A DNA stretch of 64,000 nt from Thalassovita sp. (GTDB lineage Bacteria > Bacteroidota > Bacteroidia > Cytophagales > Flammeovirgaceae): contig PBYL01000267.1 in NCBI GenBank assembly GCA_002729595.1, forward strand, positions 1 through 64,000, in the 5' to 3' direction. Below are positions 2,485 to 20,701 of this stretch, one piece after another. Every line of letters begins with the position of its first letter. The first letter of the stretch is position 1. The notes below the pieces were generated by a model that did not search any database, had not been told where the DNA came from, and saw nothing but the letters and a program-made list of their open reading frames with translations. The translations under genes and the position numbers were made by a program.

Positions 2485-2554
2485 ATTATATTATTATGAG
2501 TCTAATATTGATAATATGGTTTTGGACAATTTATGCCATCATTGTCAGTATATT

Positions 2555-2660
2555 GTTCATTTTTCCTTGATGAAAAACGAACCAAAAAATCAAGAAAATC
2601 TTAAGCTTCTACGCACAAACCATACGCTAAGCCCCGCCAGATTTTCAAGCCAGCGCTCAT
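2555..2660 (+). repeat. Intergenic two-hairpin repeat, copy 1
   Basis: This element lies between cobN and cobW. It starts with a CTTGAT...ATCAAG arm pair around an A/T-rich core. A second inverted repeat, GAAAATC...GATTTTC, follows and encloses a GC-richer loop. The same two-part layout appears at 11619-11737 and, inverted, at 51641-51745. It looks like a REP/MITE-like non-coding repeat. Short ORFs predicted across it are not credible. Confidence 0.7.
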
Positions 2661-2694
2661 AACTTAGTAAGTTAATTATTTAAATACATCAGTA

Positions 2695-3747
2695 TTATAA
2701 CACCAACTCTAAATTTTTATCAAGGTCTTTGCCGATGACTACTAGTCTTGTTTTTCTTTCTTCTCCTTCTTTCCACTGGCGATCGAAGTAGTAATCGAAG
2801 CGGCTACCAACTCCTTGAAGCACCATTCTCATCGGTTTGTCTGGAATATTTAAGAAGCCCTTTATTCTATAAATCTCATTCTCTTTCACCAACTCAGTTA
2901 AAGATTTCACTAGCGTTTTCACATCTTTTGTATCTGAGTATTCGAGTATGATTGTCCCGATAGAATCATCGTGGTCGTGATCATGATGGTGGTGGTGATG
3001 ACCGTGACTATGATCTCCATTTTGATGATGATGCTTTTCATGCAAGGTCAATCTGTTTTCAATATCATCTTCGGTTGAAGCGCCAATACCTAATAAAAGC
3101 GCATTATCAACTTCGCCATTTACCACTGGCAAAACTTTGGTATGAGGTCTCATTTTTAAAGAGATAATTTCTTCTACTTCTTTGTATTTTTCATCATTCA
3201 CCAAATCTCTTTTACTCACCAAAACCAAATCGGCACAAGTTAATTGATCTAGGAATAATTCTTCAATTGGTGTCTCGTGGTCTAGAGATTCATCAGCGAG
3301 TCTTTGTGCTTGTACTTTTTCTCTGTTGCAAATTTCACCCGTTGCAATTCCTACTGCATCTACTACAGTAATTACTGCATCAATGGTGATATGTGGTTTT
3401 AAGTCTGGCCAGTTTACCGCTCTTACCAATGGCTTCGGCATGGCCAACCCTGAGGTTTCCACAACTATATGATCGATGGCCTCTTTCTTCTCCACCAATT
3501 CCATCATCGTTGGCAAAAACTCTTCCTGCACAGTGCAGCAAATACAACCGTTAGTTAGCTCAACCAAGTTACATTCATCATCTCCACAACCAGATTTAAT
3601 GATATCTCCATCTACTCCCACTTCACCAAATTCATTCACCAAAACGGCTATTTTTTTCCCATTTGCATTTTTGAGCATGTTGTGTAATAAGGTAGTTTTA
3701 CCCACGCCCAAAAAGCCGGTAACTATCGTAATCGGTATTTTTTTCAT
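2695..3747 (-). CDS. cobW: CobW/COG0523 G3E-family GTPase with His-rich metal-binding loop
   Basis: The protein has 350 residues. A P-loop GFLGVGKTTL lies near residue 11. The family metal-binding motif GCICC lies near residue 68. A G-protein SKRD motif lies near residue 178, and the C-terminal CobW_C domain is present. A loop around residues 238-262 is rich in His and Asp (HSHGHHHHHHDHDHDD). These GTPases act as metal chaperones or insertases. The position directly upstream of cobN on the same strand (211 bp apart, with a repeat between) suggests cobalt delivery to the chelatase. Zinc-handling relatives share the same motifs, so the metal is inferred from context only. Confidence 0.9.
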   Translation of the reverse strand: MKKIPITIVTGFLGVGKTTLLHNMLKNANGKKIAVLVNEFGEVGVDGDIIKSGCGDDECNLVELTNGCICCTVQEEFLPTMMELVEKKEAIDHIVVETSGLAMPKPLVRAVNWPDLKPHITIDAVITVVDAVGIATGEICNREKVQAQRLADESLDHETPIEELFLDQLTCADLVLVSKRDLVNDEKYKEVEEIISLKMRPHTKVLPVVNGEVDNALLLGIGASTEDDIENRLTLHEKHHHQNGDHSHGHHHHHHDHDHDDSIGTIILEYSDTKDVKTLVKSLTELVKENEIYRIKGFLNIPDKPMRMVLQGVGSRFDYYFDRQWKEGEERKTRLVVIGKDLDKNLELVL

Positions 3748-3869
3748 AGTAATATTGAGTTTAAAGAATTTTCTCTTTAAATGATTAGTGATATTAAAAT
3801 TCAGAAATTAAACCTTACTTAATAAGATTATTAATCAGCTATTTCTATAAAAATTTAATGACAATTAAC

Positions 3870-4376
3870 TTATCTATCTGTTACCAGACTATATGGATCT
3901 TCATTAATAAATTTCACCAAAAAATCACTGATACTTTTGCTGACTATAGTATAAAAATCCATTTCAATTATTTCTTCTGTTTTACCCTCTGCATTAAGTT
4001 TTATGCCCCATTGATGGGAATCAATCATAATATCTCCAATGATGAAAATATTATCTACTTCGGGTAATTCCTCTTTGGTAAATTCCACGTTAGAAAACCA
4101 AGGATATTCTTTTACTTTTTTTAGTTCTGAAATAGGATTGAGTTTGGAAATAAAATCTGCACCTTCTAAACCATTTATTTTTTGAAAATAGCGTTTTAGT
4201 TCATTTGAAAGTTTGATTGAATTCGCATTTTCAAAGTCAATTATCTCATAATCTTGAGCAGCATTACCAATTAAAATTCCATCAGATTTTAATACCCTTA
4301 TAATTTCATCCAACAACAATTCTATAGAGTTGAAATCAGTCGGTTTAATCAATTTTTTGTTACTGGATGCATCCAT
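3870..4376 (-). CDS. SUKH (SMI1/KNR4-like) domain protein
   Basis: This is a soluble acidic protein of 168 residues with no signal peptide. The middle part has the pattern of SMI1/KNR4 (SUKH) proteins: a helix with SNELKRYFQKINGLEGADF, then FIIGDIMIDSHQWGIKLN, then an acidic strand. SUKH proteins often act as immunity proteins against polymorphic toxins, but no toxin gene is seen nearby. The gene lies alone between cobW (122 bp away, same strand) and a divergent transporter lipoprotein gene. The family call rests on visual pattern only. Confidence 0.55.
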   Translation of the reverse strand: MDASSNKKLIKPTDFNSIELLLDEIIRVLKSDGILIGNAAQDYEIIDFENANSIKLSNELKRYFQKINGLEGADFISKLNPISELKKVKEYPWFSNVEFTKEELPEVDNIFIIGDIMIDSHQWGIKLNAEGKTEEIIEMDFYTIVSKSISDFLVKFINEDPYSLVTDR

Positions 4377-4716
4377 CTGATTTACTTTAAAACATCAAAA
4401 AACCTTAAACCAAGCAGGTTAATTTCATCTACAATTTTGATAAAAGACAATCCCTAGATTTCCTATTTTATTTGAATCGAATATTATTATCTAAATTTTA
4501 TCCTTTATCTCGATGGAAAATTTCAACCTTGCTAAGGTAAATAATATCTGATCGTAAAATCAAGTAGTATTTACTTTTTTGATTAAAGTTTATCTAATCT
4601 CAAATGAATTAATTGTGTAGCCCGAGTTATGCTTTTTATAAAAATTACGGTGCATCCAATTTAGTTTCAATTAGTTTTTTAGCTTTGGCGAATCATTCAA
4701 TTCAGCTATTTTATTT
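4377..4716. other. Divergent intergenic region, 340 bp
   Basis: This AT-rich spacer separates the SUKH gene (minus) from the first binding-protein gene (plus), so it should hold promoters for both. No B12 box or other riboswitch core was seen here, unlike the gap at 5.9-6.25 kb. No credible small ORF was seen. Confidence 0.5.
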
Positions 4717-5880
4717 ATGAGAATTTATCATTCAACAAACACTGGTTTGCCAGTTGTACTATTATTTTTTGTTGTATCTATTTTAAGCAGTTGTAACCAA
4801 AACAAGTCTGCATCAGAAATTACCCAAACGCAAGAATCAACACCGAACAAACCGACACTAAAGACTGTAGAAACCTCTTTCTCTCAAAAGTTTAAGGTGG
4901 ATTACCTTGCTGATGATGAAGTGAAAATCAGTATTGAAAAGCCTTGGGAAGGTAGCAAAGACCTATACGAATACACACTAAAATCGAATGCTGGTAAAGG
5001 TGAGATCAACTATCCAGTTAAATCTGTTGTTTGCCTTTCTTCTACCCATGTGGAGATGCTTAAAGAGCTAAACATGCTCGATAAAATTGTTGCTATCAAC
5101 AGTTACGAAGATATTTTTGATCAAGAAATTAAAGATGATTTTAAAGCCAGAGGAGTAAAAGAAGTAGGCAAATCTAAAAATGTGAATATAGAATTGTTGC
5201 TCGATATTAAGCCTGATTTAATTTTAGAATCTACCACAGGCTCTGGTTACGATGCTTACGAAGCACTTTCGAAATACAATTTGCCCATAGTAACATTTGC
5301 AGCGCACAAAGAAAATTTTCCACTCGGTAGGTTAGAATGGATAAAATTTTTGTCTGTATTTTTTCAAAAAGAGCAAGAAGCCAATGCTTATTTTAAAACC
5401 AAAGAAGCCTTGTACAAGCACCTGCTAGAGAAGAAGCAATCAACTGAAAAGCAGCCTGTAATTTTTGCAGGTTACAACTGGAAAGAAACTTGGTATTTGC
5501 CCGGTGGCAAAAGCTACATGGCTGAGTTTATTAAAGATGCTGGTGGCAAATATATTATGGCAGATAATACAGAAACTGGTAATGTGGCTATAGCGCATGA
5601 GCAAGTGATTGAGCTTTTGCAACAGTGCGATATTTGGTTGCATCCTGGTATTAATATTAAAAGTGAAGAAGATTTAAAAGCACTAAAAATCCCTGAGAGT
5701 TATTTTAAAAACGGCTTGCAGGTTTACAACAACAATAAAAAGCTAAACGATTTAGGTAAAAACGATTTCTGGCAATCGGGCTTTGTGCATCCAGAACTTG
5801 TGCTACAAGACCTAAGTCTTATTTTTCAAAAAGATTCACAAAACGATAAGAAGCTCATTTACTATAAAAAGATTCTTTAA
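4717..5880 (+). CDS. ABC transporter substrate-binding lipoprotein (BtuF/FecB-like), paralogue 1
   Basis: The protein has 387 residues. A lipoprotein signal ends in the lipobox ILSSC near residue 26, so it is probably anchored in a membrane. The periplasmic-binding-protein type 2 fold is recognisable from VVCLSSTHVEMLKELNMLDKI, an IELLLDIKPDLIL strand, and WYLPGGKSYMAEFI in the second lobe. A second copy with the same layout starts at 6257, on the far side of a cobalamin riboswitch. The substrate is inferred to be a corrinoid from that context. Siderophore or heme binding cannot be excluded. Translation starts at ATG. Confidence 0.88.
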   Translation: MRIYHSTNTGLPVVLLFFVVSILSSCNQNKSASEITQTQESTPNKPTLKTVETSFSQKFKVDYLADDEVKISIEKPWEGSKDLYEYTLKSNAGKGEINYPVKSVVCLSSTHVEMLKELNMLDKIVAINSYEDIFDQEIKDDFKARGVKEVGKSKNVNIELLLDIKPDLILESTTGSGYDAYEALSKYNLPIVTFAAHKENFPLGRLEWIKFLSVFFQKEQEANAYFKTKEALYKHLLEKKQSTEKQPVIFAGYNWKETWYLPGGKSYMAEFIKDAGGKYIMADNTETGNVAIAHEQVIELLQQCDIWLHPGINIKSEEDLKALKIPESYFKNGLQVYNNNKKLNDLGKNDFWQSGFVHPELVLQDLSLIFQKDSQNDKKLIYYKKIL

Positions 5881-7456: not shown

Positions 7457-8616
7457 ACTCAATCGCAACTATAAATAAATTACCTGAAAACGAAGTTCCG
7501 ACCGTTAAAGCTGCGCAATCGGTTGGCTCTTCGTTGAATGGTAAAAAACATCCGAAAGATCAGCATTTTCCGAAAGGTTTACTACCAGATAACCGCACTC
7601 GCTACTTTGGTTTTTATTTGGTGATGAGTGCATTGGTGGTCTTATTTTTCTTGCTAGACATTATGTACGGCACCGTAAGTATCCCGATGAAAGAGGTAAT
7701 TCATTCGCTTACTGGTGATTCTGTACAAAAAGAAAGTTGGGATTTTATTATTCAAGAATTCAGGTTACCCAAAGCATTAACCGCCATTATTGCTGGAGCA
7801 GGTTTGGCACTTTCAGGTTTATTAATGCAGACTCTTTTTAGAAATCCATTAGCAGGGCCATTTGTGTTGGGCATTAGTAACGGAGCGAGTTTAGGCGTAG
7901 CCATTTTGGTAATGGCTGGCAGTGTTTTACTCCAACCTTTATTAGACATGGGTGAATGGGGAGTAGTATTGGCAGCGGTATCTGGTTCTGCTTTGGTTTT
8001 GCTATTGGTATTGCTTGTTTCTATGAAGGTGAAAGACAGCATTTCACTTTTAATTGTGGGGATGATGGTCGGCAGTGCCACCGGAGCCATTGTGAGTGTA
8101 TTGCAATATTTTAGTGATGCAGAGCTTATCCAAGCCTATCTTATCTGGACATTCGGAAGTTTGGCAGGTGTTTCATGGGAACAGTTGCAGATTTTAGGCT
8201 TCACCACATTATTGGGTTTGTTGCTTACTTTCTTTGTACAGAAACAGCTTAATACATTTTTACTTGGAGAACAGTATGCCCGAGGTTTAGGCATTTCTAT
8301 TAAACGATATAGAATAATTGTGATAGTTGCTACCTGTCTGCTAGCCGGAAGCATTACTGCTTTTTGCGGGCCAGTGGCATTTGTTGGTTTGGCAGTTCCG
8401 CACATTGCCAGAGCAACTTTGCAAACATCTAATCATCAAGTGTTGATTCCCTCAGTAATTTTAATTGGGGCTGCACTGATGTTAGGTTGTGATATGATCG
8501 CCCAATTGCCGGGCAGACAGGATACTTTACCCATCAATGCTGTTACAGCCATGTTGGGTTCACCAGTAGTAATTTGGGTTGTAATCAGGTCGAGAACTAT
8601 GAAATCTTCAATTTGA
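7453..8616 (+). CDS. btuC: FecCD-family ABC permease (BtuC-like)
   Basis: The protein has 387 residues and about nine to ten hydrophobic segments after a hydrophilic N-terminus of roughly 50 residues. FecCD/BtuC signatures include FRLPKALTAIIAGAGLALSG, QTLFRNPLAGPFVLGISNGA and a C-terminal AFVGLAVPHIAR followed by PGRQDTLPINAVTAMLGSP. These permeases form the homodimeric channel for vitamin B12 or siderophores across the inner membrane. The gene overlaps the preceding binding-protein gene by 4 bp and ends 5 bp before the ATPase gene. The riboswitch makes B12 the most likely substrate. Confidence 0.93.
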   Translation: MNSIATINKLPENEVPTVKAAQSVGSSLNGKKHPKDQHFPKGLLPDNRTRYFGFYLVMSALVVLFFLLDIMYGTVSIPMKEVIHSLTGDSVQKESWDFIIQEFRLPKALTAIIAGAGLALSGLLMQTLFRNPLAGPFVLGISNGASLGVAILVMAGSVLLQPLLDMGEWGVVLAAVSGSALVLLLVLLVSMKVKDSISLLIVGMMVGSATGAIVSVLQYFSDAELIQAYLIWTFGSLAGVSWEQLQILGFTTLLGLLLTFFVQKQLNTFLLGEQYARGLGISIKRYRIIVIVATCLLAGSITAFCGPVAFVGLAVPHIARATLQTSNHQVLIPSVILIGAALMLGCDMIAQLPGRQDTLPINAVTAMLGSPVVIWVVIRSRTMKSSI

Positions 8617-8621
8617 ATGAG

Positions 8622-9644
8622 ATGAGTAATTCAAACAAAAAGATATTACAAACTAAAAACCTGAGCATTGGCTATCAGGGAAAGAAGCTGCTCTCTAGTC
8701 TCAATCTGGAACTAGAACGCGGTGAACTTACTTGTTTGCTCGGCCCAAATGGAACTGGAAAGTCTACCCTGCTTCACACACTTACGAATATGCTCAAACC
8801 TGTTTCAGGTGAAGTGTATATTCAAGGGAAATTGTTAGACAAACAAAGTCCGGCTGAGTTGGCTTACCTCATCGGAATCGTATTGTCTCAAAAACTCTCT
8901 CCTGTTAATTTGAGTGTTTTTGACATTGTGGCACTAGGCAGAACGCCTTATACCAATTGGTTGGGGCATCTTTCTAACATAGATAAAAGAGCAGTTTATA
9001 AAGCGATGGAATTAGTTGGAGTTACCAAGTTTGCCAGTAGAAGCATTAATAAATTAAGTGATGGGGAAAGGCAAAGAGTGATGATCGCTAAAGCTTTGGC
9101 ACAAGATACGCCACTAGTTGTATTAGATGAACCCACTGCTCATTTGGATGTAAACAATCGTGTTTCGCTCATTTCATTATTAAAAGAACTAGCCAGAGAA
9201 ACAAACAAAGCCATTTTACTTTCTACACATGAACTTGAAATGGCCATTCAACTGGCAGATTCTGTTTGGCTCATTACCAATCATCACGAATTAAAAAGTG
9301 GTTCGCCAGAAGATTTGGTTTTAACCGGAATTATGGCCGAAACATTTAAAGGGAAAAGTATCGCTTTTGATATGCACTCTGGTGCTTTCAAAATTTTACA
9401 TAAAACGAATAAAACAGTAAACCTGCAAAGCCATGGCATACCGGGTTACTGGACAAAACACGCACTTGAAAAAGAAGGTTTTCAAATTACTGATGAAGCC
9501 AATGCCTCGATCAGTATTTCTATGAATAACGACTCACCTTACTATTGGAAAGTGCAGTACAATCAATCTGAAGTGGAAGTGAAATGCATTTCAGATTTAA
9601 AAAAGACATTGCGTTCTGCAACCAGCGAATGCATGGCAAATTAA
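8622..9644 (+). CDS. btuD: ABC transporter ATP-binding protein (BtuD/FecE-like)
   Basis: From the ATG at 8622 the protein has 340 residues. The frame extends back to a TTG at 8574 inside btuC, but ATG is preferred because MSNSNKKILQTKNLSIGYQ begins the ATPase domain directly. Walker A is GPNGTGKST, the ABC signature is LSDGERQR, and Walker B is LVVLDEPTAHLD. An H-loop histidine lies in LLSTHELEMA. About 85 extra C-terminal residues after the nucleotide-binding domain have no recognised function. As the last gene of the riboswitch-led operon, it powers the BtuC-type permease. Confidence 0.93.
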   Translation: MSNSNKKILQTKNLSIGYQGKKLLSSLNLELERGELTCLLGPNGTGKSTLLHTLTNMLKPVSGEVYIQGKLLDKQSPAELAYLIGIVLSQKLSPVNLSVFDIVALGRTPYTNWLGHLSNIDKRAVYKAMELVGVTKFASRSINKLSDGERQRVMIAKALAQDTPLVVLDEPTAHLDVNNRVSLISLLKELARETNKAILLSTHELEMAIQLADSVWLITNHHELKSGSPEDLVLTGIMAETFKGKSIAFDMHSGAFKILHKTNKTVNLQSHGIPGYWTKHALEKEGFQITDEANASISISMNNDSPYYWKVQYNQSEVEVKCISDLKKTLRSATSECMAN

Positions 9645-9686
9645 AAAAGGTTGCTCTTTTTTAACCGGTTTTGAGTTGGCCGGAAT

Positions 9687-9730
9687 AGTCAGGAAATCGT
9701 TATTTAACTTTTTCCTGACTTTAAAATTTT
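9687..9730 (+). terminator. Rho-independent terminator of the B12 transporter operon
   Basis: A 10-bp stem AGTCAGGAAA / TTTTCCTGACT with a loop of about 13 nt lies 43 bp after the btuD stop. It is followed by a T/A-rich tract. It separates the transporter operon from the chelatase gene at 9857. Confidence 0.6.
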
Positions 9731-9856
9731 AAAAATACAAGGCTTCTTTGTGTCATAAACGGCGTCGAGTTTAGTCAAGTAATTGTATTGCTTATTGTTA
9801 AAAATTGATTTTTAGTGTAGGAAAATTCTATTGAGATTTCCACTAATTAAGAATGT

Positions 9857-10795
9857 ATGACAAAACAGGTTTTTCCATTTTCAGCCATTGTAGGTCAGGA
9901 AGATTTCAAACTGGCTCTCATTCTCTGCATTATAGATCCAACTATTGGCGGAGTATTGGCGCTTGGCGATAAAGGAACTGGCAAAACTACTTTGGTGCGT
10001 TCTTTAAGTAATCTACTTTCTGATGAAAAACAGCAGTTCCCTTTTATCAATCTACCATTAGGAGCCTCTGAAGACAGGGTTTTAGGAAATGTTGATTTGG
10101 AAAAACTAATTAACGACAAAAAACAAGTAATTCAAAAAGGTTTATTGGCGCAAGCAAATCAGGGAATTTTATATATTGATGAGATAAATCTGTTAAATGA
10201 TTATTTGATGGATACTTTGCTTGATGCTGCTGCAACGGGCAGTTATTTTCTAGAAAGAGAAGGAATTTCAACCACTTTTGATAGCAGGTTTTGCTTAGTC
10301 GGTACCATGAACCCAGAAGAAGGAGAGCTAAGACCACAACTTAAAGATCGCTTTGGTTTGAGTGTGCAAATTTCTACACCGCAGGATAAAGAAGTGAGAA
10401 AAGCAATCATTAAAAACCGACTGATGTTTGATACCCACCCTACTGCATTTATAGCAAACCATCAGGAGCAGGAAGAAGCTCTCAAAAATGAGATTTTTAG
10501 CGCAAAATCAGCATTATTTGATATTGAACTCAATGATGAGATGATATCAAAAGCCGCAGATTTGGCTTTAGATAATGCTGTGGAAGGTATCCGTGCAGAT
10601 ATTCTTCTTATTAAAGCGGCAAGAGCATTTGCTTCTTTTCAACATAGAAAAATTGTTACAGAAACTGATCTAGAAAAAGTAGCTCCACTGGTACTCAATC
10701 ACAGAAGTAATAAAAAACCAAATGGGCAGCAATCCAATCAAAATGAATCTCCTGAAAAAAAAAAGACAAGAATGAATCAGTTCCTGAACATTTAG
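9857..10795 (+). CDS. chlI: Chelatase AAA+ subunit (ChlI/BchI-like); first part of a ChlI-ChlD reading frame
   Basis: The protein has 312 residues. Walker A is GDKGTGKTTL (near residue 37), Walker B is ILYIDEINLL (near residue 97), and a sensor-like GTMNPEEGELRPQLKDRFGL follows. This is the Mg/Co-chelatase AAA+ motor fold with its lid helices complete by about residue 270. The frame then enters a charged linker with an A10 tract at 10755-10764 and stops at 10793-10795. If the ribosome slips by -1 there, translation runs into the VWA domain at 10858-11559 and gives one protein of about 567 residues. The stopped product would be a complete ChlI-like motor for CobN. Confidence 0.9.
   Translation: MTKQVFPFSAIVGQEDFKLALILCIIDPTIGGVLALGDKGTGKTTLVRSLSNLLSDEKQQFPFINLPLGASEDRVLGNVDLEKLINDKKQVIQKGLLAQANQGILYIDEINLLNDYLMDTLLDAAATGSYFLEREGISTTFDSRFCLVGTMNPEEGELRPQLKDRFGLSVQISTPQDKEVRKAIIKNRLMFDTHPTAFIANHQEQEEALKNEIFSAKSALFDIELNDEMISKAADLALDNAVEGIRADILLIKAARAFASFQHRKIVTETDLEKVAPLVLNHRSNKKPNGQQSNQNESPEKKKTRMNQFLNI
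10755..10765 (+). other. Candidate programmed -1 frameshift site (A10-G, A_AAA_AAG)
   Basis: Ten A residues and a G are read in the zero frame as GAA AAA AAA AAG. This contains the heptamer A_AAA_AAG, the same slippery sequence as in E. coli dnaX. A -1 slip gives GAA AAA AAA AAA GAC, and the new frame stays open to 11559. A short TCAG-TTC-CTGA hairpin starts about 9 nt downstream but is weak. Transcriptional slippage on A10 would have the same result. Confidence 0.65.
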
Positions 10796-10857
10796 ATAAT
10801 AAAGAGAACCAGTCTGAGCAAAGCTTTAAACCAATAACTCCAAAATCTCAACTCCAT

Positions 10858-11559
10858 TTGAAAACTGATTTTGGGAAAGATGCCAAAAGAGGAATCCCGA
10901 TAAAGGTAAAACCCAAAAATAAGTTGCTTTTAAAAGGAAATGATTTTGTAGCGAAAACACCTGACATTAAGGCTTCGGTACTGCATTTTTTGGTGCATAA
11001 CCGATTTGAGCAACAATTTAAACCTACTGGCAATCAAAAAGATTTGTTGATTGTCTTTCTGGTAGACTCCAGTGCTTCTATGGCAAAGCAACAAATTATC
11101 TCTTATGTAAAAGGATTGATACAAAAAACATTGGAGCAACAAGCTCGATCTAAAGCATCTTTTGCACTTATTGCCTTGCTCCAAGGCGATGCAGCAGTGA
11201 TTTCGACTCCTACCAAAAACAAAAAGGAGATAATTGAGCAGTTACAAAAACTCAAAACCGGAGGCAAAACCAATATGACAGCGGGAATAATTAAGAGCTA
11301 TCATCTACTTAAACAGGCTGGTGCTTTACAAAAATTTAAATTGTTTATACTGACTGATGGCAAAATAAACCAAGGAGAAACAAAGCAACCTTTTGAGGAA
11401 GCAATTCTTACCTACAAAAAATTGCTAAAAGTTGCTGGAAGTTCACAAACAGAAGTGATTGACACAGACCAAAGCTTTATCCAGTTTGGTTTAGCTGAGA
11501 AATTTGCGAAAGGGATTGGGGCTAGGTATAGTAAATTACAGAATTCAATTTTTCGTTAA
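10858..11559 (+). CDS. chlD: Chelatase VWA-domain part (ChlD/CobT-like), -1 frame continuation of chlI
   Basis: This region encodes a von Willebrand A domain with a complete MIDAS start, FLVDSSASM (DxSxS), a threonine in GGKTNMTAG, and a late LTDGKINQG aspartate. It matches the C-terminal half of ChlD/BchD. It has no convincing start of its own, and TTG at 10858 is only the first permissive codon. The same frame is open upstream through a Gln/Asn/Glu/Pro-rich linker to the A10 tract at 10755. It is therefore read as the C-terminal half of a ChlI-ChlD fusion made by -1 frameshifting, and its 5' limit would be about 10765. A homopolymer sequencing error is the main alternative. Confidence 0.8.
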   Translation: MKTDFGKDAKRGIPIKVKPKNKLLLKGNDFVAKTPDIKASVLHFLVHNRFEQQFKPTGNQKDLLIVFLVDSSASMAKQQIISYVKGLIQKTLEQQARSKASFALIALLQGDAAVISTPTKNKKEIIEQLQKLKTGGKTNMTAGIIKSYHLLKQAGALQKFKLFILTDGKINQGETKQPFEEAILTYKKLLKVAGSSQTEVIDTDQSFIQFGLAEKFAKGIGARYSKLQNSIFR

Positions 11560-13218: not shown

Positions 13219-14226
13219 TTATTTATTCGATACACCTGCACTTTCGAAGCTTGCCATATTATTTAAAAATGTAACTGCACTTTTAATAACTGGATAAGCT
13301 ACCGCACAACCAGTTCCTTCTCCCAAACGCATTTTGAGATTAAGTATAGGCTCTGCCCCGAAATGATTCAGCATGGCAGCATGGGCGTTTTCGTCTGATA
13401 CATGGCAGAAAACTGCATTGTTTATAATCTCTGGTTTTATCTTCGAAGCAACTAAGAAGGCACTGCTGGCAATAAAACCATCTACCATAATAATCATATT
13501 CTTTTCAAATGCTCTGAGCATAGCGCCACACATTTGAGCAATTTCGAAACCGCCAAAAGTTTCTAATACAGCACGAGGTTCTTTTACATAAGCATATTTT
13601 TTCTTTACCTCACTGAGTGTAGCAATTTTCTGCTGTAATTGTAAATCGTTTAGTCCTGTTCCTCTACCCACGCAATCTTCTATTGGCAAATCGCAAAGCA
13701 CACTCATAATTAATGCAGCAGATGAAGTATTGCCAATTCCCATCTCACCAAAGCCTACTATATTACAATTTTCTGCTAAATCTTTATCTATCACTTCGGC
13801 ACCAAAAGCCAAACATTTTTCTAACTGAGCTGAGCTCATGGCTTTTTCTTCGAGCAAGTTTTTAGTGCCCTTTGCTACCTTGGCATTAATCAGTTGCGGG
13901 TGTTCTGGAAAATCGAAATTTACCCCAGCATCAATAATTTTTAAAGCTATTCCATTCTGTTTTGCAAATACATTTATGCCTGCTCCCCCATTCAAAAAAT
14001 TCATTACCATTTGGAAGGTTACCTCTTGTGGATAAGCACTTACTCCGGCTTTTGCTAAACCGTGATCTGCGGCAAATACCATAATCGAAGGCTCAATTAA
14101 GGCAGGCGACAAAGTGTTTTGTATTTTACCTATTTGAAATGCTAGTTTCTCAAGCATCCCTAATGCACCTAAAGGCTTGGTTTTCAGGTCTATCTTGTGC
14201 TTCAATTCTTCTTCTATCTGTTTCAT
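13219..14226 (-). CDS. cobT: Nicotinate-nucleotide-dimethylbenzimidazole phosphoribosyltransferase
   Basis: From the ATG at 14226 the protein has 335 residues, beginning MKQIEEELKHKIDLKTKPLG, the usual CobT N-terminus. Upstream in-frame starts would add a Cys-rich tail that is unlikely. Conserved segments include FAADHGLAKAGVSAYPQEVT, GEMGIGNTSSAA and GRGTGL, and the catalytic glutamate region near the C-terminus (RLGEGTGCAVAYP). CobT activates the lower ligand base as alpha-ribazole phosphate. It leads the cobT-cobS-cobC operon. No riboswitch was recognised upstream (14227-14448). Confidence 0.96.
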   Translation of the reverse strand: MKQIEEELKHKIDLKTKPLGALGMLEKLAFQIGKIQNTLSPALIEPSIMVFAADHGLAKAGVSAYPQEVTFQMVMNFLNGGAGINVFAKQNGIALKIIDAGVNFDFPEHPQLINAKVAKGTKNLLEEKAMSSAQLEKCLAFGAEVIDKDLAENCNIVGFGEMGIGNTSSAALIMSVLCDLPIEDCVGRGTGLNDLQLQQKIATLSEVKKKYAYVKEPRAVLETFGGFEIAQMCGAMLRAFEKNMIIMVDGFIASSAFLVASKIKPEIINNAVFCHVSDENAHAAMLNHFGAEPILNLKMRLGEGTGCAVAYPVIKSAVTFLNNMASFESAGVSNK

Positions 14227-14410
14227 AGCCTTATTTATTTTTATCTCACAATGTTTAAATCTACACATAAAACAGGCATAAAAAACACTCATTTAAAAGC
14301 ATTGATTTACCCTGTCTTTTACACTGGCAAATGTAAAAATTCCTGCCTAAGTAGACGAAGATTTTGGGGATAAATGAAGCAGAATTTGAGTTAAAATTGA
14401 AGCTTTCATC

Positions 14411-14437
14411 CTACCCAATGCATCGAGCATTGGTTAG
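14411..14437. repeat. Hairpin just downstream of the NACHT-FGE gene
   Basis: CTACCCAATGC and GCATTGGTTAG are separated by five bases and pair over 10 of 11 positions. It sits 11 bp past the stop of the minus-strand gene at 14449 and about 80 bp past the candidate variable region. No T run follows, so it does not look like an ordinary terminator. Diversity-generating retroelement targets often carry a hairpin at this position. Confidence 0.6.
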
Positions 14438-14448
14438 GGTGTTGGTGT

Positions 14449-16581
14449 TTACTCCCCTGCAAGCTCTCTCTCATTAAAAGTGTTAGAGTGTAATGCCCTT
14501 GTGAGTCGAAACCCAAGGTTGAAGTACCTGTAATCAGGATTGTCGAAGTAGCGGAACGCCACACGACAGTTGATATTGTAGTAGTTCCTAGAGCCGCCAC
14601 GAACCACTCGATGATTTCCAGATTCAGCACCTAATGGGTTATCTTTATCCGCTTTGTTATACTCCCCATACCAATCCCAACACCACTCAAAAACATTTCC
14701 GCTCATATCATAAATACCCAATTCATTCGGTTTTAATTCTCCTACAGGATGTATATTTTTATTGGAGTTTTTATTATACCATCCCACCTCATCTAAATTA
14801 TTACTCCCAGCATATGTATATCCTTTGCTTAACTTACCCCCTCTAGCTGCAAACTCCCACTCTGTTTCTGTTGGTAAGCGATATCCGTTGGCATTTTCAT
14901 TTGTTCTTATCATCCATTTCTTTTTATCTTTTTCACTTTTATTATTCGGGTCTACTCTATCTTTATCTATACTATAAAATTTTGATAACCCATGTAGTTC
15001 ACTTAATTTATTACAAAATTCTACTGCATCATACCAGCTCACAGATTCAACGGGACAATTGTCACATCCTTTAAATTTGCTTGGGTTATTACCCATCACA
15101 GTTTTCCATATTTTCTGTGTTACAGGATATTTTCCTATTAAAAAATCATTTGCTATAACATCATTTTGTTTTCTATTTCCATTCATATTATATTCAACTC
15201 CTATCATTTTAATTCTTGGGTAAATACTTTTGCCGCCCATTTCTTCATAAAACTTCCTTGCTTGGTCCATTCCATCGTTATTTGTTATATCCAATGCTAG
15301 CAAATCATTTTGCATCATTTCTTTAGCAAGAAAGTATTCCATAAAAGATTTGTGAGCAAACTTCCATTCTCTGGCGGTATTTCGGGTAAGCAAAGACCTG
15401 CCTGTTATTTGGAAATCAGTAAGGGTTAAGCTATGCTTATCTGCTAAAGGTAACAATGTATCTCTGGACACTTCTAGTTTATCATTTCCATTTTTCCATT
15501 CTTCAAAAAGTAATAGGGCAAAGTTTTGCGAGAAAGTATACAGCTCTTTTTTAAATTGAGGGCGTTTTTCTTTTTCTGGTATTCTTACTGCTTCGCGTTC
15601 TAACCATTTTTCAATTAAAGCTTCGTAAATCTGGTAGGTGAATTCAAACTTTCTTGTTTTATCTTCCAGTAAATCTTCCACATAACTGAGCAACATGGGT
15701 CTTACCATGAGGTTAGGAGATTGCTTAACAATTACCTGTGCTTTTTTCTTTTTAGCCCTGTTCCAAAGTGGAAATCTGCCAAACTTTTTATTTAAGTATT
15801 TTTTTATATCAGCATCTTCAAAAGGAGAAACATACATTTTTCTAAATCTATGAAACCCGCCTTCAGGGCCAAATTTTGGAATTTTTATCTCATCAGGTTC
15901 GTCTTCCTGTGCCTTAAAAAACTGTGTGCGACTAGTAATAACCACTTCTCTAAAATCCCTTACTTGTTGCATTACCTCATCCAATCTCTTTCTATAATCT
16001 AGTACTGCTTCTTCATCTTCATCAAAAGCATCGAGTAATAAAATGCTTTTCTTTACTTCCTCACTATTCCCACATATTTCTTTAATTTTTTCTAAAGTTC
16101 TAGAATCCTTAAAAGGCATTAAATAAATTTTGTATGTTTTATTGAAATTAAAAACAGAATTGTATTGGGCAAATAGATTAATCATAAAAGTAGTTTTACC
16201 CATCCCCGAATCTGCCAAAATGAGGTAAAAGCGTTGATCATCCTGATCATTCTTAAAGCCTTTTTTAATAAAAAAAGGAATTAGTTTTTCGCGAGTTATA
16301 AAGTCATATATCTGTCCAAGTTCACGCTCTTTTGATGGTGGTATATTTTGGACTTTGGTATCCACAAAATATTTTGTAGCATTTTTAACTTCAAGTTTAC
16401 TGAAATAAGGATGCAAATCATTACTCGTTTTATTAGTAACATATCCTTTGTATAAAAAGCTAATACCTTTATAAAGACCAGTAATAACTCCAATAGCACC
16501 ACCAATATATCTTAAGGTTAGTGCTATATTATCTGGTTGTGAAGCTGTTTCAGTTACAACCGTATTTATTGAATCGTTCAT
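14449..16581 (-). CDS. NACHT-type STAND NTPase with C-terminal FGE-sulfatase/C-type-lectin-fold domain
   Basis: The protein has 710 residues. An N-terminal hydrophobic segment (about 25-48) may anchor it in a membrane. The NTPase has Walker A ADSGMGKTTF (near residue 123), Walker B ILLLDAFDEDE (near 183) and VVITSR. A helical region with FAHKSFMEYFLAKEM is typical of NACHT proteins. Residues 470-700 form an FGE-sulfatase domain (GYRLPTETEWEFAARGG, GNVFEWCWDWYG, RVVRGGSRN, NLGFRL). The last part switches to C-ending Tyr and Phe codons, unlike the rest of the gene. The catalytic cysteines of true formylglycine enzymes are not evident, so a ligand-binding sensor role is inferred. Confidence 0.88.
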   Translation of the reverse strand: MNDSINTVVTETASQPDNIALTLRYIGGAIGVITGLYKGISFLYKGYVTNKTSNDLHPYFSKLEVKNATKYFVDTKVQNIPPSKERELGQIYDFITREKLIPFFIKKGFKNDQDDQRFYLILADSGMGKTTFMINLFAQYNSVFNFNKTYKIYLMPFKDSRTLEKIKEICGNSEEVKKSILLLDAFDEDEEAVLDYRKRLDEVMQQVRDFREVVITSRTQFFKAQEDEPDEIKIPKFGPEGGFHRFRKMYVSPFEDADIKKYLNKKFGRFPLWNRAKKKKAQVIVKQSPNLMVRPMLLSYVEDLLEDKTRKFEFTYQIYEALIEKWLEREAVRIPEKEKRPQFKKELYTFSQNFALLLFEEWKNGNDKLEVSRDTLLPLADKHSLTLTDFQITGRSLLTRNTAREWKFAHKSFMEYFLAKEMMQNDLLALDITNNDGMDQARKFYEEMGGKSIYPRIKMIGVEYNMNGNRKQNDVIANDFLIGKYPVTQKIWKTVMGNNPSKFKGCDNCPVESVSWYDAVEFCNKLSELHGLSKFYSIDKDRVDPNNKSEKDKKKWMIRTNENANGYRLPTETEWEFAARGGKLSKGYTYAGSNNLDEVGWYNKNSNKNIHPVGELKPNELGIYDMSGNVFEWCWDWYGEYNKADKDNPLGAESGNHRVVRGGSRNYYNINCRVAFRYFDNPDYRYFNLGFRLTRALHSNTFNERELAGE
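14518..14586 (-). other. Candidate diversity-generating-retroelement variable region (VR)
   Basis: The codons read AAC TAC TAC AAT ATC AAC, then after a fixed CGT GTG GCG come TTC CGC TAC TTC GAC, and later TAC AGG TAC TTC AAC. All five Tyr codons are TAC and all three Phe codons are TTC. In the stretches of the same gene decoded upstream, Tyr is nearly always TAT and Phe is TTT. This is the footprint expected when AAC codons of a template repeat are changed at adenines. No template repeat or reverse transcriptase was found in the window. Confidence 0.55.
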
Positions 16582-16792
16582 ATTTTGCTAATTCTACCAA
16601 AATATAGCAAGGTAATTCGAAAGTAAAAAAACAGACTTTAAAAAATTTAGAATTTGGTTAATAGTCTCATAAGCTCCCTACAAATGACATCTGTCAACCA
16701 TTTAAAATTGTAGGCATTTATTTAAAATCGTTAACTCGAACTGTCTGTTTATTTGTCATTAATCTAAAATACTAACTATTACTACGCAAATT

Positions 16793-16924
16793 ATGAAAAC
16801 AACTGGCGACTCTAGCAAAGAAAACATTAATGAATTAAGCAAAAGACTCGAAAACCTCAAAAAAGATCTAAATACGATTAATGAAAAATTTAAAAATATA
16901 GACAAAGAGCCCAACAAAAAATAA
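16793..16924 (+). CDS. Small 43-residue charged helical protein, function unknown
   Basis: This ATG-started ORF encodes a hydrophilic peptide rich in Lys, Asn and Glu, with heptad-like spacing in NELSKRLENLKKDLNTINE, so a short coiled coil is likely. It has no signal peptide or membrane segment. It is the only plus-strand gene between the NACHT-FGE gene (divergent, 211 bp) and cheB (convergent). It ends directly at a strong terminator, which supports it being a real transcription unit. No family is recognised. Confidence 0.5.
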   Translation: MKTTGDSSKENINELSKRLENLKKDLNTINEKFKNIDKEPNKK

Positions 16925-16965
16925 GAAAAGGAGAAATTGATAAATTCAATTTCTCCTTTTCTTTT
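16925..16965. terminator. Strong bidirectional terminator
   Basis: A perfect 15-bp stem GAAAAGGAGAAATTG / CAATTTCTCCTTTTC with a 7-nt loop is flanked by A and T runs. It starts right after the stop of the small ORF and touches the cheB stop, so it can serve both strands. Confidence 0.85.
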
Positions 16966-18028
16966 ACAGGTTTCTTAATATAAATGGCGTGATAAAATCT
17001 AAAGACAAAACTTTTTCGACAGCATTAAGCTCAATGGCTTTTTTAGGCATACCAAATACCACACTCGACCTCTCGTCTTGAGCAATGGTTAGTGCTCCTG
17101 CTTCTCTCATGTCTAGCATACCTTGTGCACCATCTGCTCCCATACCAGTTAGAATTACACCTATACTGTTTTTACCTGCATAATTGGCCACAGACCTAAA
17201 CAATACATCTACAGATGGGCGGTGTCGGTTAACCAGTGGGCTATCTAGTAACTCTACATAATAGCGAGCACCATTTCTTTTTACCACCATATGTTTGTTA
17301 CCTGGCGCAATGAGTACCCTACCTCTAATAATATTATCACCATGACTGGCTTCTTTTACAGTTACTTCACAAATACCATCGAGGCGTTGAGCAAATGATT
17401 TTGTAAACTGCTCAGGCATATGTTGTACAATTACAATCCCGGGAGAGTCGCCCGGTAGTGCTTGTAATAAATGTCTAATTGCTTCTGTTCCTCCAGTTGA
17501 GGCTCCAATCGCCACTACTTTTTCTGTAGTTTTTATTAAGCTGTTATTTTGCCTTCTGGCAATCACCTCAGATACATTTACCTTAGCAGGCACTTTAGGG
17601 ACTGTAACCGCAGCACGTCTTTTAATTTTAGAAACAGATGCAGCTTTTATTATATCAAATAACCTGAGTTTATAATCTTCAAAAAAAGATTTGAGGTGTA
17701 ATTGTGGCTTGGTTAATATTTCTACTGCACCGTATTCGAGCGCTTTCATGGCCATTTCTGTTCCTTTGGCTGTTAAGCTCGAAATAATTACAACCGGAAT
17801 TGGATGCTGTGTCATTATTTTCTTGAGGAATGTTAAGCCATCCATCTTGGGCATTTCAATATCCAATGTAATTACATCTGGAACCATTTTGGTCAGTTTT
17901 TGGGCTGCCATGTATGGATCGGCCGCTGTACCCACTACCTCTATGCTTTTATCCTCAGAAAAAACAGATACCAGTGTTTGCCTTACCAGTGCAGAGTCAT
18001 CTACAATTAATACCTTAACTTTTTTCAT
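16964..18028 (-). CDS. cheB: Chemotaxis response regulator protein-glutamate methylesterase
   Basis: The protein has 354 residues. The N-terminal receiver has [12 protein letters not shown], phospho-acceptor aspartate in [13 protein letters not shown] (near residue 56), and lysine in LTKPQ. The C-terminal methylesterase has the serine motif GASTGGTEA (near 173), a [15 protein letters not shown] histidine and an [13 protein letters not shown] aspartate, giving the Ser-His-Asp triad. It removes methyl groups from the chemoreceptor. The gene follows cheR by 53 bp and ends at a strong terminator. Confidence 0.96.
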
Positions 18029-18081
18029 TCATTCCTCAATTAAACCTTCCAAACAATAACGGACTCAATTCTTAAATAATA

Positions 18082-18930
18082 CTATGCATCTATCTTTTGA
18101 AAAATAGTTGGCCCCAGCTGTTTCAAAGGTAATTTCATATCAATAATTGTTTCTGAATGACCTAAGAATAAATAACCGCCCGTTTTAATCTTACGCGATA
18201 TTTTTCTTATTACTTTTTCTTGTGTAGGCTTATTAAAATAGATGAGCACATTTCTACAAAAAACCACATCAAACTTATATGAGATATCGTAGTAGTCGTC
18301 CATAAAGTTTAATTGTTGAAAAGTAACTTTCTTTCTAAGCTCTGGAATTATTCTAACCGTATTTTTAGTCTTGTCTTTACTTTTTAGTAAATACCTCTTT
18401 TTAGTTTCTAAAGGTATCTTTGCCACTCTTTCCATGCTGTAAACAGCATTCATGCCTTTTCTCAGCACTTCAGTAGAAATATCCGTTGCCAGAATGTTAT
18501 AATGAAATGAGGGATGGCTTCTCAAGTAATCGTTTAAAACCATGCAAGTGGTATAGGCTTCTTCGCCTGTAGAACAGCCCGCACTCCACAGTTTTATATA
18601 TTTTAAGTTATTTTTATCTGCGTAAGATGGAAGTACCTGTGTGGTAAGAAAATGAAAATGCTCAGGTTCTCTAAAGAAATCTGTTTTATTGGTGGTAACC
18701 GCATCAATCATATTAATGAGTTCTACCTTACCAACTCCCGGAGCAAATACATGATCTAGGTATTCATTAAAAGTCTGCACACCAACAGCATTTCGTCTTT
18801 TATTTAGGCGACTTTCTACCATTGTTTTTTTAATGTATGGCAGCTTTATTCCTACTTCATTTTCAATATACTCTTTAATTCTTCTAAAATCGGAGTCTTT
18901 CATTTTGACCCCAGTACTTAACTCTATCAT
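18082..18930 (-). CDS. cheR: Chemotaxis protein methyltransferase CheR
   Basis: The protein has 282 residues. An all-helical N-terminal CheR_N domain (about 10-65) precedes a SAM methyltransferase domain with KLWSAGCSTGEEAYT, NILATDISTEVL and VVFCRNVLIYFN, all CheR signatures. It methylates receptor glutamates and is the partner of CheB. A terminator-like hairpin lies between mcp and cheR (18970-18995), so cheR-cheB may be transcribed partly on their own. Confidence 0.96.
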   Translation of the reverse strand: MIELSTGVKMKDSDFRRIKEYIENEVGIKLPYIKKTMVESRLNKRRNAVGVQTFNEYLDHVFAPGVGKVELINMIDAVTTNKTDFFREPEHFHFLTTQVLPSYADKNNLKYIKLWSAGCSTGEEAYTTCMVLNDYLRSHPSFHYNILATDISTEVLRKGMNAVYSMERVAKIPLETKKRYLLKSKDKTKNTVRIIPELRKKVTFQQLNFMDDYYDISYKFDVVFCRNVLIYFNKPTQEKVIRKISRKIKTGGYLFLGHSETIIDMKLPLKQLGPTIFQKIDA

Positions 18931-18969
18931 GCAGCTGATTTATAATTTTGTCATTTTGAGGAAAATAAA

Positions 18970-18995
18970 CCCTCAACACAATTGAGTGCTGAGGG
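18970..18995 (-). terminator. Terminator or attenuator between mcp and cheR
   Basis: CCCTCAACAC / GTGCTGAGGG pair over 10 positions with one weak pair and a 6-nt loop. On the minus strand TTTATTTTCC follows, so read-through from mcp into cheR would be reduced. Confidence 0.6.
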
Positions 18996-19042
18996 AAGGT
19001 GTATGTATTATAAATTAATTAGCGTCATATATTTGTTAGTGA

Positions 19043-20701
19043 TTAAAATTGCTCGTATTCTTCATCTGAATCATCATCCACATCCATATCTAGTACAACA
19101 CCAGATGATTTTTTCGATTTAGCCGCAATCATATGTTCTGATACCTCAGGTTTTTTCTTTCTTGGTTTTACTTTCCTTCTACTCTTTTTACCAAGATTGT
19201 TACCTACATTAAAGAAGATGATAGCTTCTCTTAATTCACTTGCCTGATTAGCCAACTCTTCTGCACTTGCAGACATTTCTTCTGAAGTAGCAGCATTTGA
19301 TTGAACTACCAAGTTCAATTGTTGAATAGCAGAATTAACCTGACTTGCTCCAGAGTTTTGCTCTATACTAGCTGCTGCAATTTCTTGCACCAAGCTCGCT
19401 GTTTTCTGGATATTCGGTACAATTTCTACCAGCAACCTACCAGAAGTTACGGCAGTTTCTACACTTGAACTAGAAAGTGTATTAATCTCTGTCGCTGCTA
19501 CTTGCGATCTTTCTGCTAACTTTCTCACCTCTGCTGCTACCACAGCAAAACCTTTTCCGTGTTCACCAGCTCTGGCTGCTTCTACGGCTGCATTCAGTGC
19601 TAGTAAATTAGTCTGGCGAGCTATTTCACTAATAATCGAAATCTTATTAGCAATTAACTTCATCGACTGCACAGTCTCATTTACTGAATGGCTACCTTCT
19701 CTTATATCATCAGATGCCTTAATGGCTATCTTCTCAGTTGCTTGCGCATTTTCTGTATTCTGCTGGATGTTCGATACCATTTCTTCCATAGAAGATGAAA
19801 CCTCCTCAGTTGATGCCGCCTGCTCCGTACTACCTTGCGACATTTGCTGAGATGATGATGACATTTGCTCACTGGCTGCTGCAATCTGATCTGCCGCAGT
19901 GCTCACAAAAGTGATTACCTCTTTCAATTTCACAATCATATCTTTAAGGTACTCTAACAAATCACCTATTTCATCTTTATTAGTAGATTCTATATTTACA
20001 GTCAAATCTCCTTCTGAAACAGCCTTTATTGCCGACATGGCCTTATGTATTGAACTAGTAATTGTTATGATAATCCAAAATGCCAATACTGTTGCTACAA
20101 GTAAACTTACTCCCAAAATAATCCACATTAATCTTTCACCAGACTCGTACAAAGCATTTGTCTCTAAGTTAGCGGCTTCTAATGCTTTTTCGTTTTTTCT
20201 CACAATTTGAGAAACAATGGTCACCGCTTCTAATGCTTTTTGCCTCGCTGTTGTTGAAGAAATTTCGTAAGCCAATTGCTCAGTAGAATCATTTTTTACT
20301 CCCATTGAGAGCGATTTTATCTTTGCAAATGAGCTTGTGTATTCACTCCAACGCAACTGGAAATTATCCAGAATTTCAACTCCTTTCTCATCTGAAATAT
20401 CTTTAAGCTCGGCGTATCTATTTTCCATATCCTCAGTTCTGGCATCCACCTGCTTAACAAGATCCATCAATACTTCTCTATCTTTAGAAAGGATAAGATC
20501 CTTTTCTCTTTTCGTGATAAACTGAACATCTTCAGCAATTTTTGCGGAAAGATTAATCCGCTGCGTATTTACTTTTATAATCTCATCAATCTTTTTATTT
20601 AGCTGGTAAGCATTGTTATTTCCTATATAGAAAACAACCAACGCAGCTGATAACTGTACAATAGTTGCCAGTATCAACTTTGCTTTGATAGTAAATTTCA
20701 T
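19043..20701 (-). CDS. Methyl-accepting chemotaxis protein
   Basis: The protein has 552 residues. The first membrane segment spans about residues 7-27. A periplasmic four-helix-type sensing domain follows (about 28-190), then a second membrane segment (about 193-213), a HAMP domain (about 215-267), and a coiled-coil signalling domain. The hairpin tip is [19 protein letters not shown], and flanking repeats carry methylation-type Glu/Gln/Ser pairs. The tail is basic and then acidic ([15 protein letters not shown]). It is the only receptor in the window. The ligand is unknown. It probably controls gliding or another surface motility, because no flagellar genes are seen. Confidence 0.93.

What the first reader, a model, noticed from the sequence alone, without database searches (positions are those of the whole stretch)
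14449..16581. NACHT-FGE sensor protein with the codon footprint of a DGR variable region
At 14518-14586 (minus) the sequence encoding YYNIN, F, YFD, Y and YFN is built from TAC, TTC, GAC, ATC and AAC codons: five of five Tyr as TAC and three of three Phe as TTC. Decoded stretches upstream in the same gene use TAT about nine times against TAC once, and TTT only. Known DGR targets place such adenine-mutated NNC codons in the RVxRGGS...GFRL end of a C-type-lectin-fold domain, exactly as here. NACHT plus such a domain suggests a diversified innate-immune-like receptor. No reverse transcriptase or template is in the window, so this would be a remote target.
Basis: partly seen in the sequence, partly recalled or inferred. 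Interest (0 to 1): 0.8.

Follow-up and report, generated by a model that had tools for sequence, protein, structure and literature searches.

The report
NLR-like protein with retroelement-diversified sensor
This bacterial gene encodes an immune-receptor-like protein whose tip carries the fingerprint of a retroelement that rewrites binding sites at chosen letters; the rewriting machinery is not in this incomplete genome assembly but is present in a species of the same genus, so the find is a good new example of a recently described kind of system.

Summary
The codon footprint is real. All 13 NNC codons at 14518-14586 lie in a gene that otherwise strongly prefers NNT (13C:4T against 30C:159T, p=3.5e-7). 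The C-terminal domain is an FGE-subtype C-type-lectin domain whose best solved match is TvpA, the Treponema DGR variable protein (5.6e-41), far ahead of true FGE enzymes. The N-terminal half is NACHT by predicted fold (NLRP3, NOD2, NLRC4), although no Pfam NACHT cutoff is reached. Six tandem FGE genes of the same genome (contig C287) share the pattern: where two relatives' templates have adenine, the seven genes differ at 59% of comparisons, against 9% at non-adenine positions. Nine ordinary FGE genes of the genome lack it. No DGR reverse transcriptase, Avd or template is found in this genome, but the assembly is only 77.7% complete. A species of the same genus has Avd+RT+template; another genus of the family has RT+template+target with 14/30 adenine and 0/60 non-adenine changes. 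Best reading: a DGR-diversified sensor of an NLR-like receptor, acted on in trans by a DGR that is unassembled or lost. NACHT/STAND-FGE DGR targets are already published (Kaur 2020, Dore 2024), so this is a new member. Its NACHT relatives mostly carry LRRs instead.

The parts
14449..16581 (-). NACHT-FGE gene, 710 aa, stand-alone between a cobT-like gene (13219-14292) and cheB (16964-18028)
   Evidence: ORF listing; Pfam; fold search
16450..16527 (-). N-terminal hydrophobic segment, residues 19-44 (IALTLRYIGGAIGVITGLYKGISFLY); absent from the two LRR-family homologues aligned first; possible membrane segment or effector (inference)
   Evidence: hydropathy 1.43 over 19 residues; alignment
15202..16446 (-). 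NACHT/STAND NTPase, residues 46-460; Walker A GMGKTT (16189-16206), Walker B LLLDAFDED (16015-16041)
   Evidence: invariant columns; VIA Z 14.7 to NLRP3, 13.4 to NLRC4, 13.3 to NOD2; Pfam nSTAND_NTPase5/nSTAND3 below cut-off
14500..15177 (-). FGE-subtype C-type-lectin domain, residues 469-694
   Evidence: PF03781 E 2.8e-45; TvpA 2y3c E 5.6e-41
14503..14610 (-). variable-repeat-like stretch; NNC codons within 14518-14586
   Evidence: codon statistics; paralog substitution pattern
14407..14441 (-). imperfect hairpin after the stop codon (15-nt arms 87% complementary, 5-nt loop); role uncertain
   Evidence: about eight hairpins of this strength in the window; not the GRNA-loop type of phage DGRs (PMC3240598)

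Best explanation
The gene encodes an NLR-like receptor: a short hydrophobic N-terminus, a NACHT NTPase, and a C-terminal FGE-type C-type-lectin sensor whose binding face has been rewritten by a diversity-generating retroelement (DGR). An error-prone reverse transcriptase copies an AAC-rich template, putting random bases opposite adenines, and the cDNA replaces the variable repeat, giving NNC codons. The DGR acted in trans, since no RT or template is beside the gene; it is either in the unassembled part of the genome or lost. Six single-domain FGE genes on contig C287 show the same imprint and are likely further targets of this or related DGRs. Shown: codon and substitution footprint, domain identities, presence of such DGRs in the same genus and family. 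Inferred: trans action, current activity, ligand sensing, NACHT oligomerisation and a defensive outcome.
For: NNC excess p=3.5e-7; rank 1 of 67 FGE C-termini. At template-AAY columns the window gene has 0/16 purine-ending codons and the seven DGR-like own-genome genes 7/111, against 57/142 in nine ordinary FGE genes of the same genome (p=1.3e-10). Among the seven, pairwise difference at codon positions 1-2 is 58.6% where both relatives' templates have A, 9.0% where neither has, 22.1% upstream; permutation p=5e-5. Domain closest to TvpA. Same-genus contig G001:C377 has Avd (NCBIfam DivGenRetAVD above cut-off), an RT with an IGNLTSQ motif, and a template 82% identical to the adenine-restored window VR. 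Same-family G010:C394 has RT, template and FGE target with 14/30 adenine and 0/60 non-adenine changes. A Saprospirales contig couples Avd and an RT 60% identical to the G001 RT with a TIR-nSTAND1-FGE target. NACHT fold.
Against: RT, Avd and cognate template are not found in this genome even at relaxed thresholds. G001's template is not the cognate one: 14 of 56 non-adenine positions differ. VR-like codons also occur in G022 (97% complete) and G155 (89%) without a DGR RT of this type, so the footprint can outlive or lack a detectable DGR. No second strain was available. No defence family matched in PADLOC, and the gene is not in an evident defence island.
Confidence: 0.78

Rival explanations
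1. Orphan or fossil target: the gene was once diversified (or was acquired already diversified), the DGR has been lost, and the sensor is now fixed.
For: No RT/Avd/template in the assembly; G155 carries a NACHT-FGE with the same codon pattern and no such RT; remnant target genes without core DGRs are described in T. denticola (PMC4891356).
Against: The window VR has kept an almost perfect NNC pattern with no decay to NNT; the assembly is only 77.7% complete; DGRs are present in the same genus.
Confidence: 0.35
2. Natural ligand-driven divergence of a C-type-lectin site, without reverse transcriptase: surface residues vary under selection and the NNC codons are incidental.
For: The same surface is variable in FGE/CLec families in general; some FGE genes with no DGR RT in their contig or genome also have NNY-rich sites.
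Against: Nine ordinary FGE genes of the same genome have 40% purine-ending codons in these columns against 0/16 here; third bases stay C in a gene of NNT bias; non-adenine positions inside the VR are less divergent than the rest of the domain.
Confidence: 0.06
3. A catalytic formylglycine-generating enzyme fused to an NTPase, with no sensing role.
For: PF03781 match.
Against: Far closer to TvpA than to any FGE; of the two cysteines near the variable site in the FGE enzyme 6muj only the second position keeps a Cys in the alignment.
Confidence: 0.02

Closest known systems
STAND/NACHT-CLec DGR targets of Thiohalocapsa PB-PSB1 (DGR 3 and DGR 6; Dore et al. 2024, PMC10907252)
   Same: NACHT or nSTAND NTPase fused to a C-terminal CLec domain with the VR (FGE subtype named for DGR 6); proposed antigen sensor; some targets remote and diversified in trans
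   Different: The window gene's DGR is not found in its assembly; its NACHT family is otherwise mostly coupled to LRRs; no adjacent protease or adaptor gene recognised
TvpA of Treponema denticola (PDB 2y3c) and its DGR (PMC4891356)
   Same: FGE-subtype variable domain, sequence match E 5.6e-41; VR at the extreme C-terminus; remote targets known there
   Different: TvpA is single-domain and lacks a NACHT module
DGRs of the same-family genome G010:C394 and same-genus genome G001:C377
   Same: AAC-rich template of the same layout (RGGSWNNN...RVANRNRNNP..NR...GFR); FGE target in G010
   Different: Templates differ from the window VR at non-adenine positions, so they are not its own template; G010's target is a single-domain FGE
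Antiviral STAND (Avs) and bacterial NACHT (bNACHT) proteins; eukaryotic NLRs
   Same: NTPase fold and tripartite N-terminus / NACHT / C-sensor layout
   Different: Their sensors are TPR, LRR or others and not known to be DGR targets; no defence assay here
FGS/CLec DGR targets of VMAP ternary conflict systems (Kaur et al. 2020, PMC7159879)
   Same: TvpA-type FGS domain diversified by DGR within conflict systems
   Different: No MoxR/vWA/VMAP ternary set was recognised beside this gene; the nearby AAA+/vWA genes at 9857-11559 look chelatase-like and were not tested as such a system

Membership tests
DGR variable (target) protein | C-type-lectin fold domain at the C-terminus carrying the VR | tested here: met
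   PF03781; TvpA 2y3c best sequence match; VIA Z 10.5 to 2y3c, although this part of the model is of low confidence
DGR variable (target) protein | variable residues encoded by adenine-derived NNY codons | tested here: met
   0/16 purine-ending codons and 12/16 NNC at template-AAY columns; nine ordinary own-genome FGEs 57/142 purine-ending
DGR variable (target) protein | substitutions concentrated at template adenines | tested here: met
   paralogs of the same genome, adenine positions taken from two relatives' templates: 58.6% vs 9.0%; indirect, since the own template is unknown
DGR variable (target) protein | cognate template repeat identical at non-adenine positions | tested here: inconclusive
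   none in the 77.7% complete own assembly by blastn or degenerate pattern with 3 mismatches; none exact in viral contigs
DGR variable (target) protein | DGR reverse transcriptase and Avd in the same genome | tested here: inconclusive
   none in own assembly, which is incomplete; present in the same genus
DGR variable (target) protein | hairpin shortly downstream of VR (7-10 bp GC-rich stem, GRNA tetraloop, 4-34 bp away in phage DGRs) | tested here: inconclusive
   a hairpin lies at 14407-14441 but with a 5-nt loop and about 60 bp after the VR; cellular DGRs need not follow the phage rule
NACHT / STAND NTPase | Walker A and B motifs and NACHT fold | tested here: met
   Walker A GMGKTT and most of Walker B (D184, A185, D187-D189) invariant in 11 homologues; NLRP3, NLRP7, NLRC4, NOD2 best structural matches, Z 13-14.7; Pfam NACHT only weakly and only for homologues
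Antiphage NACHT / Avs defence system | protection against phage | not testable with these tools
   no PADLOC match; experiment needed
Formylglycine-generating enzyme | pair of catalytic cysteines | tested here: not met
   in the alignment with 6muj only the second Cys position is kept

The most novel reading that the evidence does not exclude
One NLR chassis with two sensor strategies: the same NACHT family carries fixed LRRs in most relatives and a DGR-rewritten lectin sensor here, and in this cell a single trans-acting DGR diversifies a NACHT receptor together with an array of six free sensor domains, forming an antigen-receptor-like repertoire.
Probability: 0.25. Interest if true: 0.8.

Novelty: new member of a known kind. 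Interest (0 to 1): 0.52.

Why it matters
DGR-diversified immune-like sensors are proposed as a bacterial counterpart of a variable receptor repertoire, but protection has not been shown (PMC10907252). Here the NACHT half has close homologues with LRR sensors, so the same signalling chassis occurs with a fixed or a hypervariable sensor, a natural comparison for testing what the diversified tip does. It also shows that such targets can be spotted from codon pattern alone when the DGR is missing from a fragmented assembly, a class that searches anchored on the reverse transcriptase miss by design (PMC8144416).

Tried and rejected
Cognate template in own genome: blastn of the VR and of the adenine-restored VR, and degenerate patterns; the first patterns were one codon short and are void, the corrected one found only the VR itself. 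RT by Pfam RVT_1 and by the G001 RT, and Avd: none in own genome. G001 template as the direct template: rejected, 14/56 non-adenine mismatches. Automatic template search in the 80 GTDB loci of FGE relatives: only the G010 control was recovered, so most FGE relatives are not beside a recognisable template. Phage-type hairpin: suggestive hairpin but wrong loop and distance, and about eight equally strong hairpins occur in the window; the C287 genes lack one of this form. Viral contigs: no match. Plasmids: only a distant NACHT match in Paraburkholderia. AlphaFold of the FGE domain alone had pLDDT 49 and was not used. G022 and G155 were checked as counterexamples: VR-like codons with no such RT. 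In one search the 4443 gene has a one-codon gap in the VR; the raw ungapped comparison of that gene is therefore out of frame and was not used.

Full report
OBSERVATION. The gene 14449-16581 (-) encodes 710 aa. Its last part, 14503-14610, reads RVVRGGSRNYYNINCRVAFRYFDNPDYRYFNLGFRL. A scan of long open frames of the window shows that a few other C-rich 33-codon windows exist, so position and context matter. Among 67 FGE-domain C-termini gathered from relatives and other phyla the window gene has the strongest excess.

DOMAINS. Pfam finds FGE-sulfatase at residues 469-694 (2.8e-45) and STAND NTPase models below cut-off. Among solved structures the FGE part matches TvpA, the DGR variable protein of Treponema denticola, at 5.6e-41; the next is CotH/CarF (5aoh) at 8e-21, and true FGEs are at 5e-16 or weaker. 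Only one of the two FGE cysteines is kept. The N-terminal half (46-460) folds with fair confidence (mostly pLDDT 70-95) and its best structural matches are NLRP3, NLRP7, NLRC4 and NOD2 (Z 13-14.7); Avs4 also appears. Homologues of this half occur in scattered genomes of the same order: 16 of 390 including its own, the close ones 38-48% identical. They mostly end in leucine-rich repeats; one (G155) ends in an FGE domain whose variable site also has only NNY codons at the template-AAY columns. So one NACHT family carries either sensor. A hydrophobic segment at residues 19-44 is absent from the two LRR-family homologues aligned first; that it is an effector or membrane anchor is inference.

IS IT A DGR VARIABLE REGION? 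Own genome: no RVT_1 match, no match to a same-genus DGR RT even at E 10, no credible Avd, no template. The assembly has 487 contigs and is 77.7% complete, so absence proves little. Same genus (G001:C377): Avd (NCBIfam DivGenRetAVD above cut-off), an RT with the IGNLTSQ motif, and an AAC-rich template encoding RGGSWNNNNNNSRVANRNRNNPNNRNNNNGFR, 82% identical to the window VR with its presumed adenines restored. Its non-adenine positions differ from the window VR at 14/56 sites, so it is a relative of the needed template, not the template itself. Same family (G010:C394): RT, a template overlapping the 3' end of the RT frame, and an FGE target; template and VR differ at 14 of 30 adenines and 0 of 60 other positions, a textbook DGR. 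A Saprospirales contig (L153) has a TIR-nSTAND1-FGE target, Avd and an RT 60% identical to G001's; its VR is a run of N in the assembly.

INTERNAL TEST. Contig C287 of the window's genome holds six tandem single-domain FGE genes. Taking adenine positions from the G001 and G010 templates, which are independent of these genes, the seven genes differ pairwise at 58.6% of adenine positions (codon positions 1-2) but at 9.0% of non-adenine positions in the same stretch, below the 22.1% of the upstream domain; permutation p=5e-5 (the permutation used six of the genes). At the template-AAY columns the seven have 7/111 purine-ending codons (window gene 0/16), while nine ordinary FGE genes of the same genome have 57/142 (p=1.3e-10). 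Selection on a ligand site could explain variable residues, but not the conserved third bases, the absence of purine-ending codons and the unusually conserved non-adenine positions.

CAUTIONS. G022 (97% complete) and G155 have similar codons without such an RT, so the pattern may persist after loss of a DGR. The hairpin after the stop (14407-14441) is stable (z -3.3) but does not fit the phage DGR rule (PMC3240598). No strain comparison was possible. The seven-gene test uses related sequences and an alignment; the size of the effect makes alignment error an unlikely cause.

MECHANISM AND STATUS. Most likely the sensor tip was, and may still be, rewritten in trans by a DGR encoded elsewhere, and the NACHT part relays binding to an N-terminal or partner effector, as in NLRs. 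The first step is well supported as history; present activity, trans action and defence are inference. NACHT/STAND-CLec DGR targets and trans-acting remote targets are already described (Dore 2024, PMC10907252; Kaur 2020, PMC7159879), so this is a new member of a known kind. The less expected features are the LRR/FGE sensor swap on one NACHT family and the six-gene free sensor array.

Noticed in passing
L041 (own genome contig C287) 1626-7416: Six tandem single-domain FGE genes, all with DGR-like variable sites, followed by an LRR-Roc-COR-DUF4062 protein (7685-10273) and NTPase/TIR-like proteins at 16055-19812.
   Followed up: partly
L075 (G010:C394) 529-5388: Complete small DGR (RT with the template overlapping its 3' end, FGE target) next to an LRR-Roc-COR-TIR gene.
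   Followed up: partly
L153 5207-9833: Saprospirales TIR-nSTAND1-FGE target with Avd and RT; the VR is a scaffold gap of N, as expected if hypervariability breaks assembly.
   Followed up: partly
L213 1417-3618 (G155): Second NACHT-FGE protein of the same NACHT family; variable-site codons all NNY at template-AAY columns, but no DGR RT of this type found in that genome.
   Followed up: partly
L048 near 1776 (G022): FGE domain at the end of a repeat-rich protein with a significant NNC excess in a 97% complete genome lacking a DGR RT of this type.
   Followed up: no
window 14407-14441: Stable imperfect hairpin 7 nt after the stop codon of the NACHT-FGE gene, without a T run.
   Followed up: partly
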